A stretch of DNA of 64,000 nt from Octadecabacter sp. SW4 (GTDB lineage Bacteria > Pseudomonadota > Alphaproteobacteria > Rhodobacterales > Rhodobacteraceae). Shown here piece by piece: positions 38,573 through 63,409 of the stretch. A program made the translations under genes and the position numbers. Positions within the stretch are counted from its first letter, which is position 1, and every line of letters starts with the position of its first letter. The DNA is taken from contig NZ_CP042819.1 of the NCBI RefSeq assembly GCF_008065155.1, forward strand, positions 1 to 64,000, read 5' to 3'. The notes beneath the pieces are model-generated. The model made no database searches. It was not told the DNA's origin and saw only the letters and a list, made by a program, of their open reading frames with translations.

Positions 38573-39330
38573 TGATCGAGGTTAGCACTGACATCCTGTT
38601 GCTGCTGATGGCCGCAGCCTTCATCGCGGGAATCGTCGATTCCATTGCCGGTGGTGGTGGTCTGATAACGCTGCCCGTTCTGGTGATCGCTGGCGCACCA
38701 CCCCTGACGGCGATTGCGACAAACAAGGTGCAGGGGGTCTTTGGTGCGGCTATGGCTGCCTTTGCCTATGCCCGCGGTGGCCATGTGAACCTGCACCGCC
38801 AGTGGCAAGCGGCCTGCATAGCCTTCGCGGCCGCGATTATTGGCGCTCTCCTCACATCTTCCCTCCCGACCGAGGTGATCCGCCTTGGCTTGCCGGTCCT
38901 GCTGATCGCAATTGCGCTGTTCTTCGCGCTGAAGCCGGGGTTGAACGATCTGGACCGCACCGCGCGGGTCACGCCCGTGGTATTCACGCTGACGCTTGTG
39001 CCGTTAATCGGCTTTTATGACGGGCTAATCGGGCCGGGGGCGGGATCGTTCTATATGATCGGTTTTGTCGGGCTAGCGGGCTATGGCGTCCTCAAGGCAA
39101 CAGCCCATACGAAACTGCTGAACTTTGCCAGTAACGCCGGCGGCATTGTCGCCTATGCGGTCGTGGCGCAGCCCTGGTGGTTTGTCGGGCTGGCGATGGG
39201 TGCGGCACAGATGGCGGGGGCCTATGTCGGATCACGCCTTGCCATGCGCATCGGGGCACGGTTGATCAAACCACTGGTGGTGATCGCTGCAACCGCGCTG
39301 GCGCTGAAACTGATCTGGGACATGACCTAA
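38572..39330 (+). CDS. TSUP family transporter (TauE/SafE)
   Basis: A 252-residue membrane protein with about eight hydrophobic segments. The family repeats are AGIVDSIAGGGGLITLPVLV at the N terminus and the matching YDGLIGPGAGSFYMIGFVGL in the second half. Characterised members export sulfite, sulfoacetate or related organosulfur anions; here the substrate is unknown. It overlaps serB by one base and so shares its transcript. Its stop overlaps that of the convergent asparaginase (CTAA). Confidence 0.9.
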   Translation: MIEVSTDILLLLMAAAFIAGIVDSIAGGGGLITLPVLVIAGAPPLTAIATNKVQGVFGAAMAAFAYARGGHVNLHRQWQAACIAFAAAIIGALLTSSLPTEVIRLGLPVLLIAIALFFALKPGLNDLDRTARVTPVVFTLTLVPLIGFYDGLIGPGAGSFYMIGFVGLAGYGVLKATAHTKLLNFASNAGGIVAYAVVAQPWWFVGLAMGAAQMAGAYVGSRLAMRIGARLIKPLVVIAATALALKLIWDMT

Positions 39331-40313
39331 AGAACGGGGTGCATTTCGCCCGTGTCCCAACCGTTCCGATTTAAGATGCGCGGATTGCGATATTTAATTG
39401 CGGTGGGGTGGTTCGGGTCCAGCACACCAAGCCGCACAAGGATATCGGCAATCACGCATTCTGATGCGCGTGTGGCGCCATCGGTGATCTTGAGAGCAAC
39501 ACCGATACGCTTGTCGGGAATGATTGCGGTAAATGCTCCTTCCGCCCCGAACTTCACGGCGACTTTGCCATCCATCGCCTGCATCAAATCCGTGCTGGAC
39601 TGTGCTTTGCCCGCGACCATCTCGGGAAAGGCGATCATCGCTTGGGTCAGCCGCGCCGCAGCCTGTGAACGCAGATCGTTCCGATCCTGTGCTGTGGCAA
39701 AGAACGCCATCGCACGCGCCAGACCGTGGACCGTTGTCGCAAAATTCGGGGCCGAGCATCCGTCAAGTCCGTGGCCAAGGCTATCTTGCGATGTGACGTC
39801 TTCGAAGGATTGCTTGAATGCCCTCTGGAGCGGGTGGTCGAGCTCAATATACTCTGGACCCGCCTTGAGGTGGTTCACCACAGTCAGGAAGCCCGAGTGT
39901 TTGCCCGAACATTCGTTGTGGTATTGGCAGGGGCTGCTGTCGGTCTTGATAAGTTTGTTGCGGGCATCGTTGTCGGCTGGCATGGCTGGCCCGCAGCGAA
40001 AATCCGCATCACTATAGCCAAGCGTGGCAATCCACTCGCGCACAGTATCAGTGTGGATTTTTGCCGCACTGTGGGATGCGCAGGCCAGCGCCAGATGCGC
40101 GTCCGTCAACCCGAATGCATCTGCCGCGCCGCTTTCGACCAGCGGCAGCGCCTGCACCATCTTGCACGACGAACGCGGGAAAATCACCATTTCGGGATCG
40201 CCCCAGGCGTCGATAATCTGGCCCGACCCGTCACAAATCACCGCATGCCCCTGGTGCGCGGATTCAAAAATGCCACCGCGCCAAAGTTCGACCAAAGTCA
40301 CGGGATTTCCCAT
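39327..40313 (-). CDS. Asparaginase (AsnII family, COG4448 type)
   Basis: A 328-residue enzyme of the rhizobial-type asparaginase II family, unrelated to the E. coli type I/II enzymes. Conserved blocks are LVELWRGGIFESAHQGHAVI, FPRSSCKMVQALPLVESGAA, CASHSA, CSGKHSGFL and DGCSAPNFATTVHGLA; the Ser-Lys and Ser/Cys-Lys pairs in FPRSSCK and CSGKH are the proposed catalytic elements. It converts asparagine to aspartate and ammonia. Confidence 0.9.
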   Translation of the reverse strand: MGNPVTLVELWRGGIFESAHQGHAVICDGSGQIIDAWGDPEMVIFPRSSCKMVQALPLVESGAADAFGLTDAHLALACASHSAAKIHTDTVREWIATLGYSDADFRCGPAMPADNDARNKLIKTDSSPCQYHNECSGKHSGFLTVVNHLKAGPEYIELDHPLQRAFKQSFEDVTSQDSLGHGLDGCSAPNFATTVHGLARAMAFFATAQDRNDLRSQAAARLTQAMIAFPEMVAGKAQSSTDLMQAMDGKVAVKFGAEGAFTAIIPDKRIGVALKITDGATRASECVIADILVRLGVLDPNHPTAIKYRNPRILNRNGWDTGEMHPVL

Positions 40314-56734: not shown

Positions 56735-56887
56735 ATGGTGTGCTCCCTCGTGAGTTGTTCGAAATGTCTGGCAGGGTTGGCGGGCAAAGTCCAATAACAC
56801 CACCGCGCTTGGTCCAAGTGATTGCGCGACAGGCCTGCCGCCGCTATAGCGCAGGCGAACCTGACCTTTGCCAAGCCGGAGAACACC

Positions 56888-57715
56888 ATGTCCAACGCCG
56901 CCCTTGAAACAGCCATTGAAGCCGCATGGGAGGCGCGCGACGGAATTTCTCCTACGACGACCGGCGCGGTGCGCGACGCCATCGAAGACACCCTGAATGC
57001 GCTGGACAGCGGCAAACTGCGCGTGGCCGAACGGCGTGAGAACGGCGACTGGCATGTGAACCAATGGGCGAAAAAGGCGGTTCTGCTGTCGTTCCGCCTG
57101 AACGACATGGAGACCATTCCCGGTGGCAACGGCGCATCCACATGGTGGGACAAGGTGCCGTCGAAATTTGACAATTGGGGCGACAATCAGTGGCGCGCTG
57201 CGGGTTTTCGCGCGGTTCCGGGCAGCATCGTGCGGCGGTCCGCCTTTATCGGCAAGAATGTGGTGCTTATGCCGTCGTTTGTTAACATCGGCGCATATGT
57301 CGATGAAGGATCAATGGTTGATGGTTGGGCCACGGTCGGAAGCTGCGCACAGATCGGCAAGAACGTGCACCTGTCCGGCGGGGTCGGGATTGGCGGTGTG
57401 CTGGAACCAATGCAGGCCGGCCCGACGATCATCGAGGACAACTGCTTTATCGGTGCGCGCTCGGAAGTGGTCGAAGGGTGCATCATCCGCGAAGGCTCGG
57501 TTCTTGGGATGGGCGTGTTTATCGGCCAATCGACCAAGATCGTGGATCGTGAAAGCGGTGAAGTCTTTTATGGCGAAGTGCCGCCCTATTCGGTGGTGGT
57601 TGCCGGGTCCATGCCGTCGAAAAACGGGATCAACCTCTATTGCGCGGTGATCGTGAAACGGGTCGATGAACGCACCCGTTCCAAAACCGGCATCAACGAA
57701 TTGTTGCGCGACTAA
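56888..57715 (+). CDS. dapD: 2,3,4,5-tetrahydropyridine-2,6-dicarboxylate N-succinyltransferase
   Basis: DapD succinylates tetrahydrodipicolinate in diaminopimelate/lysine synthesis. The 275-residue protein has an N-terminal helical domain, the left-handed beta-helix built from hexapeptide repeats ([40 protein letters not shown]) and the conserved [17 protein letters not shown]. The ATG at 56888 gives the normal [14 protein letters not shown] start. dapE, which acts two steps later, is 4.5 kb downstream. Confidence 0.96.
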
Positions 57716-57796: not shown

Positions 57797-58150
57797 ATGT
57801 CGGACGCCCCGCAGAAAAAGAAACCCTCGCGCCAGCAGGTCTTTACCTTGCTGGTCGAAGTGGGCCGCAAAGACGGTGATGGCCTGCCCAAGGATGCGAC
57901 CGGCGCGGCGTTGATGATCTATGCCAGCGGCGTGGACGAGGCCGAGGCCGTGCGCGAAACCGTTGCGATCCTTAAACAGGCCGATATGAACCCCTTGGAT
58001 GTGTCCGGCTATGGCACGCTTGATGAACGCCTTGCCGAGGGACATGACATCGCTGACGAGGAAAAAGATCTGATGGCGCGCGCGCTGGCCGAAAACAGCG
58101 TGATCGTCGCGCAGATGACGCCGTTTTTTGGTGATGACGAACCCGCCTAG
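57797..58150 (+). CDS. Conserved-looking hypothetical protein
   Basis: A 117-residue acidic, soluble protein with a basic start (SDAPQKKKPSRQQVFTLLVE). The body alternates helices (GAALMIYASGVDEAEAVRET, ILKQADMNPLDVSGYGTL) and a conserved-looking end DLMARALAENSVIVAQMTPF. No family is recognised. It has a clear ribosome site (AAAGGCAGC) and stands 81 bases after dapD. Its stop overlaps the opposing gene in CTAG. Confidence 0.7.
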   Translation: MSDAPQKKKPSRQQVFTLLVEVGRKDGDGLPKDATGAALMIYASGVDEAEAVRETVAILKQADMNPLDVSGYGTLDERLAEGHDIADEEKDLMARALAENSVIVAQMTPFFGDDEPA

Positions 58151-59199
58151 CCGCCCGCAGGGCCAAACCATTTCAGCTTGATTGCCTCGTATGTGCCGTT
58201 TTCGCGCAGGCGCAGCAGCGACTGGTTGATTTCCTCGGCCAGGGGGCTGCCCGTAGGCAGTGCGATCCCATAGCTTTCGGGCACGAAGACGGACCCCACC
58301 AAACGGCCTGTGTCAGCCCCGTCCGTTGTCACGTAATAGGCCAGAATGGGGGCGTCAAACACGACCGCGTCAAGCGTGCCGTCTTCGAAGGCCGCGATCA
58401 ATGTGTCCAGATCATCAAAGGTCAACGCACGCAAGTCGCGCCCCTCCAGAAAGCCGGCAGCAGTAGAGTCGCCAATCGTGCCAACGCGCTTGTCATAAAG
58501 GTCATTCACGCCTGACACATTTGTCTGAATTGCCGCGACGGTCAGCGTTGCGGTGATTTTTGCGACAAAGATCGACACACCGAACAGCGAGGCCACGACC
58601 AGGATGACGCCAAACAAGCGCCCCAGTGGCGAACGTGGCGCGCGTTCTTCAAAGCTGCCGTTTACCACAAGGTTCAACGCCCACCAAAACGCCGGAAAGG
58701 CCATCTTGCGCGCGCCTCCGTCGAAATAGGGCTGATGATTACGCTCAAACCGCCACATCATCATGCCTGCCGCAAACAGCACGCCAAACGCCGCCAGAAC
58801 ACCCAATAGCAGATCGCGTGAAAACAGCACCGACCAGAGCGATGCACCGCCCGCCCCGGCAGGGATCATGATTTGCAGACCGGCGGCAAAAATCGGTTGG
58901 CTAAAATCCATCATCGCTTCGCGCTCGGCGGTGATCGAAATATTGGCAATGGCGGCATCGACCTCGCCATCTATCACCATAGCAATCATTTCGGAAAAAC
59001 TGTCGGCACGGACAAAGTCATAGCTTCGCCCAAGGTCGTTCATGATGCTCGCCCAGAGGTCGACGGAAAATCCAACGTCATGCCCGCCGTCTATCATCGA
59101 AAATGGGGCGCGCGTGACTGTTGCGACCCGCAAGTCCTGCGCCGTAACCATTGACGCAAAACCCGCCATGAAGCCGATTAAGACAATTGGAAACCGCAT
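58147..59199 (-). CDS. Prokaryotic ionotropic glutamate receptor homologue with unusual pore
   Basis: A 350-residue GluR0-type protein: signal peptide (1-20, ASMVTAQ), ligand-binding lobe 1 (22-115), a pore module (TM1 about 130-150, pore helix/filter 167-187, TM2 about 191-214), then lobe 2 (228-345). This is a SBP_bac_3 domain interrupted by an ion channel. The pore module FWWALNLVVNGSFEERAPRS has NGSFEE where GluR0-like proteins have TVGYGD, so selectivity is probably not that of a potassium channel. Ligand is expected to be an amino acid. It could also be a solute-binding protein with vestigial membrane helices, but the pore-loop layout argues for a channel. Confidence 0.85.
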   Translation of the reverse strand: MRFPIVLIGFMAGFASMVTAQDLRVATVTRAPFSMIDGGHDVGFSVDLWASIMNDLGRSYDFVRADSFSEMIAMVIDGEVDAAIANISITAEREAMMDFSQPIFAAGLQIMIPAGAGGASLWSVLFSRDLLLGVLAAFGVLFAAGMMMWRFERNHQPYFDGGARKMAFPAFWWALNLVVNGSFEERAPRSPLGRLFGVILVVASLFGVSIFVAKITATLTVAAIQTNVSGVNDLYDKRVGTIGDSTAAGFLEGRDLRALTFDDLDTLIAAFEDGTLDAVVFDAPILAYYVTTDGADTGRLVGSVFVPESYGIALPTGSPLAEEINQSLLRLRENGTYEAIKLKWFGPAGG

Positions 59200-59257: not shown

Positions 59258-60352
59258 CTAGCCCTGGGCCGTCGCCAATTCAGTGAGGGTCAGTGCCTCA
59301 AAGCCACGCAAGACGGGCAAGGCAAGATCCGATTGAAGGGGCCGCAATTCCGGCGGCAAGTCTCGCAAGACCGAATGGGGCAGCACGCCCGGATCGGCAA
59401 GAAGCGCGCTGACATCAAAGCTTTCAAGCGGTGCACCGTTGACAATAATGACGGCATGGCGATCCAACAGCACGTGATAATACCGCACCGTTTGCGGCGC
59501 AGGATCAATTGCCAGGACCGCCCGATGGTCGATCATATGGCGCATGGCTGCCGACACGCATTCTTCGCCAAACAGGTATTCAACATCTGATCCTGACAGA
59601 CAAATTCGCTGGTCGCGCCCAAGCAACAGATCGGCCGAGGCACCATGATAAGGCGCGCGCAACAGACAGGGTGCAAACCGCCCGCGGGCAGGCAACACCT
59701 GCGATCCCACCCAGCGCACCTGTGCCACGTCACCTTGGGCCGTGCTGACAAATTCACCTGGGCGCAATGTGTCGATCGGGGTTTCACCCGAGGGTGTTTT
59801 AATGCTGCCCCGCGCACCAATCGCGGGCATCGGCCCTGCGGGTTCAACACTGTCTGACACGGCGGCAAAGTGCAGGCTTGGGTCGGCTTTGCACAGCGTA
59901 TGATCAGCCATCAGACGTGTTGCATCGCGCAATGTTAACGGAAAAGGCGCGCTGACATCGGTTTGAAACAGTGTGCCACGATCCGGCACATAAAGCGTCA
60001 GCGTGCCACGTCGTGCAGGACAATCCCACGTATATGAAATCTGCAAAACGCTTTCGCTGACCTGCAAATCGGTCGCAAGATCGCGCGACAAATGGCGCGC
60101 GCCGTGCCGCATCAGCAGGCGCAGTGTCCCGTCTGTATCAAGGCATAGCGTCAAACCCGAAGGCCAGGGATCACGGGCAAACAGGCGCAGGATATTTACC
60201 GGAAGCGGCCCCGGTTCATAGCTGCACTCAATGAATAACGTGCCGCTGGTCAATAGCGTGTCGGGGTCAGGCGCATTGGCAAGATTGGGCTGGCCAAGCC
60301 CTGCCGGGTTCAGCACGCCCTCGCTGCCGTCGCGAAGCCCGATCCAACTCAT
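59258..60352 (-). CDS. Hint-domain protein without the catalytic Cys
   Basis: A 364-residue protein: an N-terminal beta-rich region (1-185, resembling a lectin/laminin-like fold) and a Hint domain from about 190 (PAIGARGSIKTPSGETPIDT to the end). Hint autoprocessing needs Cys or Ser at the first splice position; here the region corresponding to CFVAGT in the neighbour is AIGARGS, with no Cys. The Hint fold strands VRWVGSQVLPARGRFAPCLL and DRAVLAIDPAPQ are retained. It is likely non-processing. It is directly downstream of the second Hint protein, 20 bases apart, and so is part of the same transcript. Confidence 0.8.
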   Translation of the reverse strand: MSWIGLRDGSEGVLNPAGLGQPNLANAPDPDTLLTSGTLFIECSYEPGPLPVNILRLFARDPWPSGLTLCLDTDGTLRLLMRHGARHLSRDLATDLQVSESVLQISYTWDCPARRGTLTLYVPDRGTLFQTDVSAPFPLTLRDATRLMADHTLCKADPSLHFAAVSDSVEPAGPMPAIGARGSIKTPSGETPIDTLRPGEFVSTAQGDVAQVRWVGSQVLPARGRFAPCLLRAPYHGASADLLLGRDQRICLSGSDVEYLFGEECVSAAMRHMIDHRAVLAIDPAPQTVRYYHVLLDRHAVIIVNGAPLESFDVSALLADPGVLPHSVLRDLPPELRPLQSDLALPVLRGFEALTLTELATAQG

Positions 60353-60371
60353 GTTCGGCGCGCCCGCATTG

Positions 60372-61979
60372 TTACGCCGCCGCCTGTGATAGCAGCAACC
60401 GCGCCTCGTAGTGGCGCAGGGTGCGCCGCGCGGCAGGGCTATAGCCTTCGCCGGTCAGGGCGTTCAATTCGGGAAAGACGGCGCAAATCTCGTCGATGAT
60501 ATCCTGTTCGAATGCCTTGGTCGTTTGCGGGCCGGGCAGGAAACTCTCAGTCGCGAGACCTTCGGAATAGACGACCTGATGCTTGTCGAACAACAGGTGC
60601 ACATAGGTCACGTCGCCGCCTTCAATCGTGCGCACGGACCGGTCATTGACCAGATCCTTGGCGGCAACCAGAACTTCGCCTTCGCCAAACAGCAGCTCGG
60701 CCATCGTGTCGCGGATCAGCACGCGGTGCTGGGGCGAAAGCATCAAGGTGCCATGTTCGCCAAAGGTATTCTCGCGGATGCGAATGGGGGCCATGTTGCC
60801 GATGGCAGGCACAGTGCGTTGCCCGGCCCAGCGCACCGGCTGCGCCCCGTCATCATGGGTGATAACCATATCGTCGGCCTGCAACTGTTCGACAGGTTTG
60901 TCGCCGTCGGGCGTGCGGATCAGGGTGCCCGCCACAAAGCAAGGGATCGTTTCAACGGTGACAAACCCGACATCCGTTTCCAGAACCGTGCCGGACCCAT
61001 CCGTGCTTTCGACTTGGTAGGTAAAGCTCGTGGTTTCAAAGTCGCTGTCCGTCGTGATGTCGAACGTGCCATCGGCCAGCAGTGTGACTGTTTGGCCGGT
61101 CGGCAAGGTGATTGTCTGACCCACCGTCACGGCATTGCCGTTGATGTGGGTGATCTGCAAGGTGCCGCTCGTGTTGTTGATATCGTTGTCCAGCACATCA
61201 ACGTTCTTGGTTACACTGTCCTGCATGGTGACAAGGTCTTGTTCGGCCACCAGTTGGGTCTGCACGGAATCTGCCGCGATCAGAAGGTTCGAGTCATAGC
61301 TGCTGTCCGACACATCGGCGATGCCGATCTTGATCGTATTTGTCACGCCAACATTCACCGGAATCGTCAGCGTCATGGTGACGGTAAAACCGTCCATCTC
61401 GGTGTTGAACTGGTCGGACGTGTTGTCGTTATAAAGGTTGACGTTGTTGGTCTGATTGACCGCACCAATGGCCGTCTGGTTGGTGTTCGCAATCGACAGC
61501 GGCACGTGCGTTCCGTTGATCCAGACACCAACCATATCGTTGTAAATCGAATTCGAATACTCTGGGTATTCTTCAGAACTAAAGACGAACTGCATCGTCA
61601 TCACGTCATCGGTTGGGATGAAATCCACCACCATATACGAGGCATCATATGTGTTGGTGCCTGCCACCGCATTGAAATCGGCGTCATTGTTCGCGCCGCC
61701 GGTATTGGTGCTGGTATTGGTATCTTGGTTCGACTGGCCCGAAGAATTGGTGAAATTCGTCGCCCGACCCGTGGAGAAAATCACGCCCGTATCGCCCGGC
61801 GTCACGCCCGGGGCGAGTGAATCACCGTTCGAATAGATCGCCGAGGAATAGCTGGAACCCGAATAGCTCGCACTCGTGACCGTGACGCCATTGCCGAAAA
61901 TCGAGTTCGCCATCTGCATCGCAGTGGCGCTTGTGTCGTATGTCAGTTCGCTTGCCGCAACCATTTTGCCCCAACCCAT
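60372..61979 (-). CDS. Choice-of-anchor L and Hint domain surface protein
   Basis: A 535-residue protein low in Cys. Residues about 5-230 match the choice-of-anchor L domain (SNGDSLAPGVTPGDTGVIFS, MTMQFVFSSEEYPEYSNSIY), about 235-330 form an Ig/cadherin-like repeat with VDVLDNDI, and the Hint domain begins PCFVAGTLIRTPDGDKPVEQ (catalytic Cys present) and ends around ESFLPGPQTT. No Sec signal peptide is present, so type I secretion is likely, as for similar roseobacter Hint proteins. Function is possibly in surface display or adhesion. The start ATG could be at 61979 or 61964. Confidence 0.85.
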   Translation of the reverse strand: MGWGKMVAASELTYDTSATAMQMANSIFGNGVTVTSASYSGSSYSSAIYSNGDSLAPGVTPGDTGVIFSTGRATNFTNSSGQSNQDTNTSTNTGGANNDADFNAVAGTNTYDASYMVVDFIPTDDVMTMQFVFSSEEYPEYSNSIYNDMVGVWINGTHVPLSIANTNQTAIGAVNQTNNVNLYNDNTSDQFNTEMDGFTVTMTLTIPVNVGVTNTIKIGIADVSDSSYDSNLLIAADSVQTQLVAEQDLVTMQDSVTKNVDVLDNDINNTSGTLQITHINGNAVTVGQTITLPTGQTVTLLADGTFDITTDSDFETTSFTYQVESTDGSGTVLETDVGFVTVETIPCFVAGTLIRTPDGDKPVEQLQADDMVITHDDGAQPVRWAGQRTVPAIGNMAPIRIRENTFGEHGTLMLSPQHRVLIRDTMAELLFGEGEVLVAAKDLVNDRSVRTIEGGDVTYVHLLFDKHQVVYSEGLATESFLPGPQTTKAFEQDIIDEICAVFPELNALTGEGYSPAARRTLRHYEARLLLSQAAA

Positions 61980-62254
61980 GTGTTGGAGACAGTTCAGACG
62001 GATTCGTGCTTGCCTTGCACGTTAACCTATATCTTGTGGCTTCAACTGCTCGCCACGGACCATCTTGGGTCTCTTTGATGTCTGCCCTGCCTCGGGTCAA
62101 TTATTGGCTTCACATTAGGCCGAATTGTCCTTTTGTGTGAGTATTTTATGGCGCTTTCTTGATGTCACATGAAAAGGTGTCGCAAGCCCGCCACAGGGGT
62201 GTTTGCATCACGCCGTGGCGCGCGCTACCTCTGGGTGCAACACAGGAGCGGATC

Positions 62255-63409
62255 ATGACCAAACCCATAGACCCGGTTGACCTTACGGCACGTCTGGTGC
62301 GCTGCGCGTCGGTCACACCCGCCGAGGGCGGCGCGCTGACGGTGCTGGCTGACCTGTTATCGGATGCCGGATTTACCTGCACCCGCGTTGATCGCGGCGA
62401 GGTGTGCAACCTGTTCGCCCGCTGGGGTGCCAAGGGGGCCGCGCGTAGCTTTGGCTTTAATGGCCATACCGATGTTGTGCCAATCGGGGACGCCGCGGCC
62501 TGGACCCACGATCCGTTCGGCGCGGATATCGTCGACGGCTTCCTTTACGGGCGCGGTGCGACGGATATGAAATCGGGCGTCGCCGCATTTGCTGCCGCCG
62601 CCGTGGATTTCGTGCGCGCCTCGCCACCGGACGGCGCAATCATCCTTGCCATCACCGGTGACGAAGAAGGCCCGGCGCTCGACGGCACAACCGCGCTGCT
62701 TGACTGGATGGAGGCGCAGGGCGAAACCATGCGAGCCTGTATCGTTGGGGAACCTACCTGCGTCGAAACAGTGGGTGACATGATCAAGATCGGGCGGCGC
62801 GGGTCCATGACCGCGCATATCACAGTGGCAGGCAAGCAGGGACATGCGGCCTACCCGCAGCGCGCGCTGAACCCGCTGCCTGCGATGGTGCGGCTGATGG
62901 ACCGGTTGGCCGGCAAGACGCTTGACGACGGCACCAACCATTTCGACCCATCGACCCTTGCGATCGTCACGATCGACACTGGAAATCCCGCCAACAATGT
63001 GATCCCCGCCCAGGCGCGTGCCAGCGTGAATATCCGGTTCAATGACAGGCACACGGGCGATAGCCTTACGGCCTGGGTGCAGTCTGAAATCGACGCGGTG
63101 CAGGCCGAATTTGGCGTCCAGATCACCCAGGATGTGAGAGTATCAGGAGAGGCGTTCCTGACGCCCCCCGGCGCGCTTTCGACGCTGATCAGCGACGCGG
63201 TGCGCGCCGAAACGGGAAACACCCCTGACTTGTCCACGACCGGCGGCACATCGGACGCGCGGTTTGTCAAAGACCACTGCGCCGTGGTCGAATGTGGCCT
63301 TGTCGGTAAGCGAATGCATCAAGTGGATGAGCGTGTGCCGGTCACCGATATCGCAACCCTCAAGGCGATCTACACCCGCATCCTGCAGGCCTATTTCAGC
63401 CAGCCTTGA
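62255..63409 (+). CDS. dapE: Succinyl-diaminopimelate desuccinylase
   Basis: DapE releases succinate from N-succinyl-LL-diaminopimelate in the lysine pathway. The 384-residue M20 peptidase has the metal site [12 protein letters not shown] (H, D), the catalytic Asp-Glu region [12 protein letters not shown], and the C-terminal His in [14 protein letters not shown]. The longer frame from 62159 is not conserved; ATG 62255 follows CAGGAGCGGATC. A terminator-like hairpin follows it. Confidence 0.95.

What the first reader, a model, noticed from the sequence alone, without database searches (positions are those of the whole stretch)
58147..59199. Bacterial glutamate-receptor-like channel with NGSFEE in place of the TVGYGD filter
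The protein has the split ligand-binding domain and pore layout of GluR0-type receptors, with a P-loop between two helices. Aligned on the following RxPLGR, the filter is NGSFEE rather than TVGYGD. Two acidic residues in the filter suggest non-potassium, perhaps calcium or non-selective, conduction. It sits alone among dap and Hint genes, so its job is not given by context. What is seen is the motif order and the substitution; the change of selectivity is inference.
Basis: partly seen in the sequence, partly recalled or inferred. Interest (0 to 1): 0.65.

Follow-up and report, generated by a model that had tools for sequence, protein, structure and literature searches.

The report
Bacterial glutamate-receptor channel, non-potassium filter
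This gene encodes a bacterial relative of the brain's glutamate-gated ion channels whose pore lacks the potassium filter and instead carries an asparagine at the position that sets ion selectivity in NMDA receptors; it belongs to a known but electrically unstudied bacterial group, so it is a good test subject rather than a new kind of channel.

Summary
58147-59199 (-) is an intact 350-aa ORF: signal peptide, S1, M1, re-entrant pore loop, M3, S2. NGSFEE (residues 180-185) replaces TVGYGD without gaps. It is not peculiar to this gene, nor scrambled: of 100 distinct close pore sequences, 96 read NGGFEE, and the window alone reads NGSFEE. The gene's place beside a conserved 117-aa gene and dapD/dapE recurs in 15 of 16 loci of this clade that I examined. 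The closest described kind is the 'Group 2' prokaryotic iGluRs of Ger et al. 2010 (no K+ filter); GluR0 (K+ channel) is of the other group. Alignment puts N180 on the Q/R/N site (Asn in GluN1/GluN2, Gln in GluA2) and E184 on the +4 acidic site of AMPA receptors. Best reading: an amino-acid-gated, tetrameric, non-K+-selective cation channel, probably with some Ca2+ permeability owed to N180 rather than to the two glutamates. Conduction, tetramer and ligand were not tested; AlphaFold models were low-confidence. Caution: the only same-genus relative held has lost the whole pore. Verdict: new member of a known kind; moderate interest, because I found no electrical test of any bacterial iGluR with this filter.

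The parts
58147..59199 (-). prokaryotic ionotropic glutamate receptor (iGluR)-like gene, 350 aa
59140..59199 (-). probable signal peptide, residues 1-20 (cleavage near A20/Q21)
   Evidence: hydrophobic N-terminus; no signal-peptide predictor was available
58843..59139 (-). S1 half of ligand-binding domain (residues 21-119), with ligand residues S88 and R93
58750..58818 (-). M1 transmembrane helix (about residues 128-150)
   Evidence: hydropathy; helix in low-confidence models
58660..58698 (-). pore helix FPAFWWALNLVVN (residues 168-180)
   Evidence: conservation; helix 169-180 in model
58645..58662 (-). selectivity-filter position, NGSFEE (residues 180-185); family consensus NGGFEE
58654..58656 (-). 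codon of S182 (AGC), the window's own departure from an otherwise conserved glycine
58534..58629 (-). M3 helix and gate region (residues 191-222; IFVAKITATLTV at the SYTANLAAFLTV position)
58150..58524 (-). S2 half of ligand-binding domain (residues 226-350), with ligand residues S245, T246 and D282
57797..58150 (+). conserved 117-aa neighbour, no Pfam or NCBIfam hit; convergent, 4-base overlap
56822..57715 (+). dapD (syntenic neighbour)
62159..63409 (+). M20-family peptidase, dapE-like (syntenic neighbour)

Best explanation
The gene encodes a subunit of a ligand-gated cation channel of the plasma membrane. Four copies form a pore from M1, a re-entrant P-loop and M3 (inferred from the family). 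The S1/S2 clamshell lies in the periplasm and closes on an alpha-amino acid (glutamate-like ligand inferred), pulling the M3 gate open. The filter is of the eukaryotic iGluR kind: N180 takes the Q/R/N position, G181 and S182 line the narrow part, and the E184/E185 rings sit at the cytoplasmic mouth. It should conduct Na+ and K+ without strong discrimination, probably with some Ca2+, and may be sensitive to polyamines or Mg2+. Shown by computation: architecture, filter position, conservation, ligand-site residues, synteny. Inferred: tetramer, ligand, gating, selectivity.
For: Pfam SBP_bac_3, Lig_chan-Glu_bd and Lig_chan on one 350-aa protein. Closest solved relative over S1 and S2 is 2PYY, 'ionotropic glutamate receptor bacterial homologue', 6.9e-45. 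Pore profile hits GluA2 first (9.1e-11), with K+ channels and GluN1 also matching. N180 aligns with the first Q of GluA2 MQQGCD and E184 with its D. A single-sequence match of residues 169-219 to GluN1 (5uow_A) spans 51 residues on each side; written out, N180 falls on N of LLNSGIGEGAPRS. Ligand-site equivalents S88, R93, S245, T246, D282 conserved in 62, 63, 62, 62, 63 of 63 orthologues. N180 99/100, F183 100/100, E184 98/100, E185 97/100, P188 100/100. Topology and charge fit: hydrophobic segments at the N-terminus, M1 and M3, net-positive M1-P and P-M3 loops. Asn or Gln at the Q/R/N site raised Ca2+ permeation in an animal iGluR (PMC12226733). Ger et al. call such proteins putative glutamate-sensitive ion channels (PMC2950845).
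Against: No structure of adequate quality: full-length mean pLDDT 47, pore 64, each from 3 sequences; Foldseek hits of the pore are P-loop channels but none reaches E 0.001. The M3 gate motif differs from SYTANLAAF. S182 is unusual in this clade, and the same-genus genome keeps only a remnant without the pore, so function in this lineage could be weakening. The gene is absent from most family genomes (79 of 298 positive, including paralogues with other filters). No electrophysiology of any filter of this type was found.
Confidence: 0.68

Rival explanations
1. A non-conducting membrane-anchored amino-acid sensor: the pore fold is kept as an anchor and dimer/tetramer scaffold, and signalling passes through a partner.
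For: No current has been shown for this filter type. Bacterial homologues show many other filters, such as SANIDEGE, QAGAAQN, SGDYKE and SSAHEE, so conduction may not be kept in all of them.
Against: In this clade the filter is among the most conserved parts (NGGFEE 96/100), and the pore helix and P188 are near-invariant. There is no cytoplasmic output domain.
Confidence: 0.15
2. A K+-selective channel with an aberrant filter, working like GluR0.
For: Ungapped alignment with KvAP and with bacterial TVGYGD homologues; several bacterial iGluRs are TVGYGD.
Against: None of the close sequences has GYG; the place of its second glycine is E184 in 98 of 100, and the place of its first is Ser in the window.
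Confidence: 0.06
3. A decaying gene on its way to loss, with G182S an early loss-of-function change or a sequencing error.
For: The same-genus genome has a remnant at the same place: a stop after the signal peptide and loss of about residues 83-271. S182 and A203 depart from conserved columns.
Against: The window ORF is intact; only 3 of its residues depart from columns at least 95% conserved (others: median 1, up to 7); all ligand-site residues are kept. GluN2B has Ser at the matching +2 position, so Ser can be tolerated.
Confidence: 0.11

Closest known systems
Prokaryotic iGluR 'Group 2' (Ger et al. 2010, PMC2950845)
   Same: S1-M1-P-M3-S2 layout, Arg in S1 and Asp in S2, no ABC-permease domain, P-region without a K+ signature, similarity to eukaryotic iGluRs.
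   Different: Group 2 is defined by lack of a recognisable filter; this clade has one fixed filter (NGGFEE), and the window carries NGSFEE. The published Group 2 sequences themselves were not compared here.
GluR0 (Synechocystis Slr1257), Group 1
   Same: Architecture and ligand-binding fold (1ii5/1iit matched).
   Different: GluR0 is a K+ channel (PMC13099474); here TVGYGD is replaced by NGSFEE.
NMDA receptor GluN1/GluN2
   Same: Asn at the Q/R/N site; same spacing from that Asn to the following Pro (8 residues), APRS shared with GluN1.
   Different: No amino-terminal domain, M4 or C-terminal domain; M3 motif IFVAKITATLTV instead of SYTANLAAF; 14 of 52 pore residues identical to GluN1.
NpGluR ligand-binding domain (PDB 2PYY)
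   Same: Best solved match across both halves of the ligand-binding domain, ligand residues shared.
   Different: Only the ligand-binding domain is solved; its pore could not be compared here.

Membership tests
Prokaryotic iGluR Group 2 (non-K+ filter) | S1 and S2 flanking two TM helices and a P-loop | tested here: met
   Pfam split SBP_bac_3 with Lig_chan between; hydropathy; helices in models
Prokaryotic iGluR Group 2 (non-K+ filter) | no K+ channel signature in the P region | tested here: met
   NGSFEE at the TVGYGD position
Prokaryotic iGluR Group 2 (non-K+ filter) | Arg in S1 and Asp in S2 that bind the amino-acid backbone | tested here: met
   R93 and D282, each 63/63 in orthologues
Prokaryotic iGluR Group 2 (non-K+ filter) | no ABC-transporter domain | tested here: met
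   no such Pfam family found
Prokaryotic iGluR Group 2 (non-K+ filter) | signal peptide | tested here: inconclusive
   hydrophobic N-terminus ending TAQ; no dedicated predictor on hand; Ger et al. found two Group 2 members without one
Prokaryotic iGluR Group 2 (non-K+ filter) | falls in the published Group 2 branch of the tree | not tested
   the Group 2 sequences themselves could not be fetched by accession; my tree has only the homologues found here
Prokaryotic iGluR Group 2 (non-K+ filter) | amino-acid-gated ion conduction | not testable with these tools
   needs electrophysiology
GluR0-type K+ channel (Group 1) | TVGYGD-type filter | tested here: not met
NMDA receptor | Asn at the Q/R/N site | tested here: met
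   N180 aligns with the GluN1 and GluN2B Asn
NMDA receptor | SYTANLAAF gate motif | tested here: not met
   IFVAKITATLTV at that place
NMDA receptor | amino-terminal domain, M4 and C-terminal domain | tested here: not met
   350 aa; [quoted passage not shown]
Any iGluR | tetrameric pore | not testable with these tools
   only monomer prediction is offered; monomer models of low confidence

The most novel reading that the evidence does not exclude
A widespread Rhodobacteraceae clade of bacterial iGluRs has fixed an NMDA-like filter (Asn at the Q/R/N site plus acidic rings at +4/+5) and forms amino-acid-gated, Ca2+-permeable channels; the window is a natural +2 Gly-to-Ser variant of it. If so, Ca2+-permeable glutamate-gated conduction is not confined to eukaryotes.
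Probability: 0.35. Interest if true: 0.72.

Novelty: new member of a known kind. Interest (0 to 1): 0.42.

Why it matters
The characterised bacterial glutamate receptor, GluR0, is a K+ channel, while eukaryotic iGluRs are non-selective cation channels. A small one-gene bacterial channel with the NMDA-type Asn at the selectivity site, conserved in about a hundred sequences and lacking all eukaryotic accessory domains, would let the role of that Asn and of the acidic +4/+5 residues be tested in a minimal pore, and would bear on whether the loss of K+ selectivity came before eukaryotes. The single-residue variant in the window (S182 for G182) is a natural experiment.

Tried and rejected
Foldseek of the pore model against PDB: all top matches are P-loop channels, but best E 0.19: suggestive only. 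A scan of viral contigs for relatives found none. An early filter tally by regular expression mis-anchored on M1 in some rows and was redone. Motif labels in the tree are unreliable where 'ADGG' occurs outside the filter; only the topology is used. A coordinate slip in one alignment call and two malformed requests (32, 69) gave nothing. Considered and rejected: artefact (intact ORF, conserved across the family); unique filter of this gene (the family shares it but for S182); strict K+ channel; ABC transporter component (no permease domain; such annotation is common for these genes).

Full report
WHAT IS THERE. The window reads an intact ORF at 58147..59199 on the minus strand, 350 aa, ATG start. 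Pfam finds SBP_bac_3 (residues 23-346, 6.3e-27), Lig_chan-Glu_bd (7.8e-11) and Lig_chan (residues 139-238, 8.7e-10, above its curated cut-off). It is the only Lig_chan gene found in this 3.54-Mb genome. Hydropathy shows an N-terminal hydrophobic stretch, one segment at 123-151 and one at 190-224, with net-positive loops between them, as expected if S1 and S2 are periplasmic. NGSFEE is residues 180-185 (DNA 58645-58662).

THE FILTER POSITION. Three alignments agree. A single-sequence search with the pore aligns NGSFEE on TVGYGD of KvAP without gaps. Bacterial homologues with TVGYGD align the same way. A profile of 16 pores aligns N180 with the first Gln of GluA2 MQQGCDISPRS and E184 with its Asp, with one gap further on; by literature numbering that Gln is the Q/R site (my knowledge; the +4 aspartate and the Q/R/N site are described in PMC12226733). 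Written out, N180 falls on the Asn of GluN1 LLNSGIGEGAPRS and of GluN2B LVFNNSVPVQNP.

CONSERVATION. In a draw of 298 genomes of the family, 79 had a match at E 1e-20 or better; this count includes more distant homologues with other filters. In 63 orthologues, N180 is kept in 62, G181, G182 and F183 in 63, E184 in 62, E185 and R186 in 61, P188 in 63. With a further draw from the order, 100 distinct pore sequences scoring over 140 bits give NGGFEE 96, NGSFEE 1 (the window), NGGFEV 1, SGGFGQ 1, NASFTI 1. So the filter is a fixed clade feature and the window is its only NGSFEE case. GluN2B has Ser at the same +2 place, so the change need not break the pore. In the whole protein the window departs from only 3 near-invariant columns (L72I, G182S, S203A).

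LIGAND SITE. Residues matching GluA2 T480, R485, S654, T655 and E705 are S88, R93, S245, T246 and D282 (positions by my alignment from memory of GluA2; letters). They are kept in 62, 63, 62, 62 and 63 of 63 orthologues, and NpGluR (2PYY) shares them in the alignment. An alpha-amino-acid ligand is therefore likely; which one is not known.

CONTEXT. In 15 of 16 distinct loci of this clade examined, the gene sits next to the 117-aa gene and beside dapD and/or dapE, often with one or two Hint genes. Three of the other four loci looked at carry other filters (L155, L156, L157); the fourth (L146) is NGGFEE without the dap context. This is an old fixed location. It gives no function by itself, since the neighbour genes are convergent or separate; a ligand linked to the dap pathway is a speculation worth one assay.

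A SISTER SPECIES HAS LOST THE PORE. In the only other genome of the genus held (G049), the syntenic place keeps residues 6-82 and about 269-350, with a TAG after the signal peptide and the whole pore missing. So the gene is dispensable in this genus, and relaxed selection on S182 cannot be excluded.

OTHER BACTERIAL FILTERS. Homologues elsewhere show TVGYGD/TIGYGD, MGGFEK, NASFTI, QAGAAQ, SANIDE, SGDYKE, SSAHEE and others; a cyanobacterial plasmid copy reads GQDVTMPRG. A tree groups the NGGFEE rows (19 rows, 100/99), then with the NASFT rows (98/90), then with L069 and L120 (99/99). Lack of the K+ filter is thus common among bacterial iGluRs, as Ger et al. found.

STRUCTURE. With three admissible sequences AlphaFold2 gave mean pLDDT 47 for the whole protein and 64 for the pore. 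The pore model has helices 128-155, 169-180 and 191-234, so the pore helix ends at N180. The top Foldseek matches are all P-loop channels (Kv3.1, MloK1, NaK, GluA, KcsA, NMDA), but the best E-value is 0.19. This agrees with a pore but does not prove it; a tetramer was not testable.

MECHANISM. Periplasmic ligand closes the S1/S2 clamshell and opens M3; cations pass a filter of iGluR type. I expect weak selectivity among Na+ and K+ and some Ca2+ permeation. In a placozoan receptor Ser at the Q/R/N site lowered Ca2+ permeation, and Gln or Asn raised it about 10-fold and 3-fold, while the +4 acidic residue governed polyamine block with minimal effect on permeation (PMC12226733). E185 has no acidic counterpart in GluA2 but aligns with Glu in GluN1.

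NOVELTY. The kind is known: prokaryotic iGluRs without a K+ filter were set out in 2010 as 'putative glutamate-sensitive ion channels'. Searches of the held open-access library found no electrical recording from any of them, but subscription papers are missing from that library. The NMDA-like Asn fixed across this clade is a useful observation I did not find stated; that is not proof that it is unpublished.

Noticed in passing
L084/L085 (G049:C41, about 39166-39636): In the only same-genus genome held, the syntenic gene is a remnant with a stop after the signal peptide and loss of about residues 83-271, the whole pore included.
   Followed up: yes
window 57797-58150 (+): 117-aa protein with no Pfam or NCBIfam hit, yet 72-83% identical across family loci in this place (92% in G049) and always beside this iGluR in the dap-linked loci examined.
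   Followed up: partly
window 59258-61979 (-): Two adjacent Hint_2-domain proteins, the second with a choice-of-anchor L and a bacterial Ig domain; they come and go beside the iGluR in relatives.
   Followed up: no
L228 (G430:C64): Four tandem iGluR-like genes in one alphaproteobacterium with unusual filters (TSANIDEGE, TSENVVDGE, LNEAGDVST twice).
   Followed up: partly
L226, L227 (G1048, G1104): Family members 51-53% identical to the window protein whose filters have drifted (SGDYKE, SSAHEE) while the FPAFWWALN pore helix is kept.
   Followed up: partly
L159 and L160 (G060): One genome carries two NGGFEE iGluR genes, both with dap neighbours on different contigs: a duplication or an assembly mixture.
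   Followed up: no
L229 (Kovacikia minuta plasmid pA): A cyanobacterial plasmid-borne homologue (33% identity) with a short AMPA-like filter region, GQDVTMPRG.
   Followed up: partly
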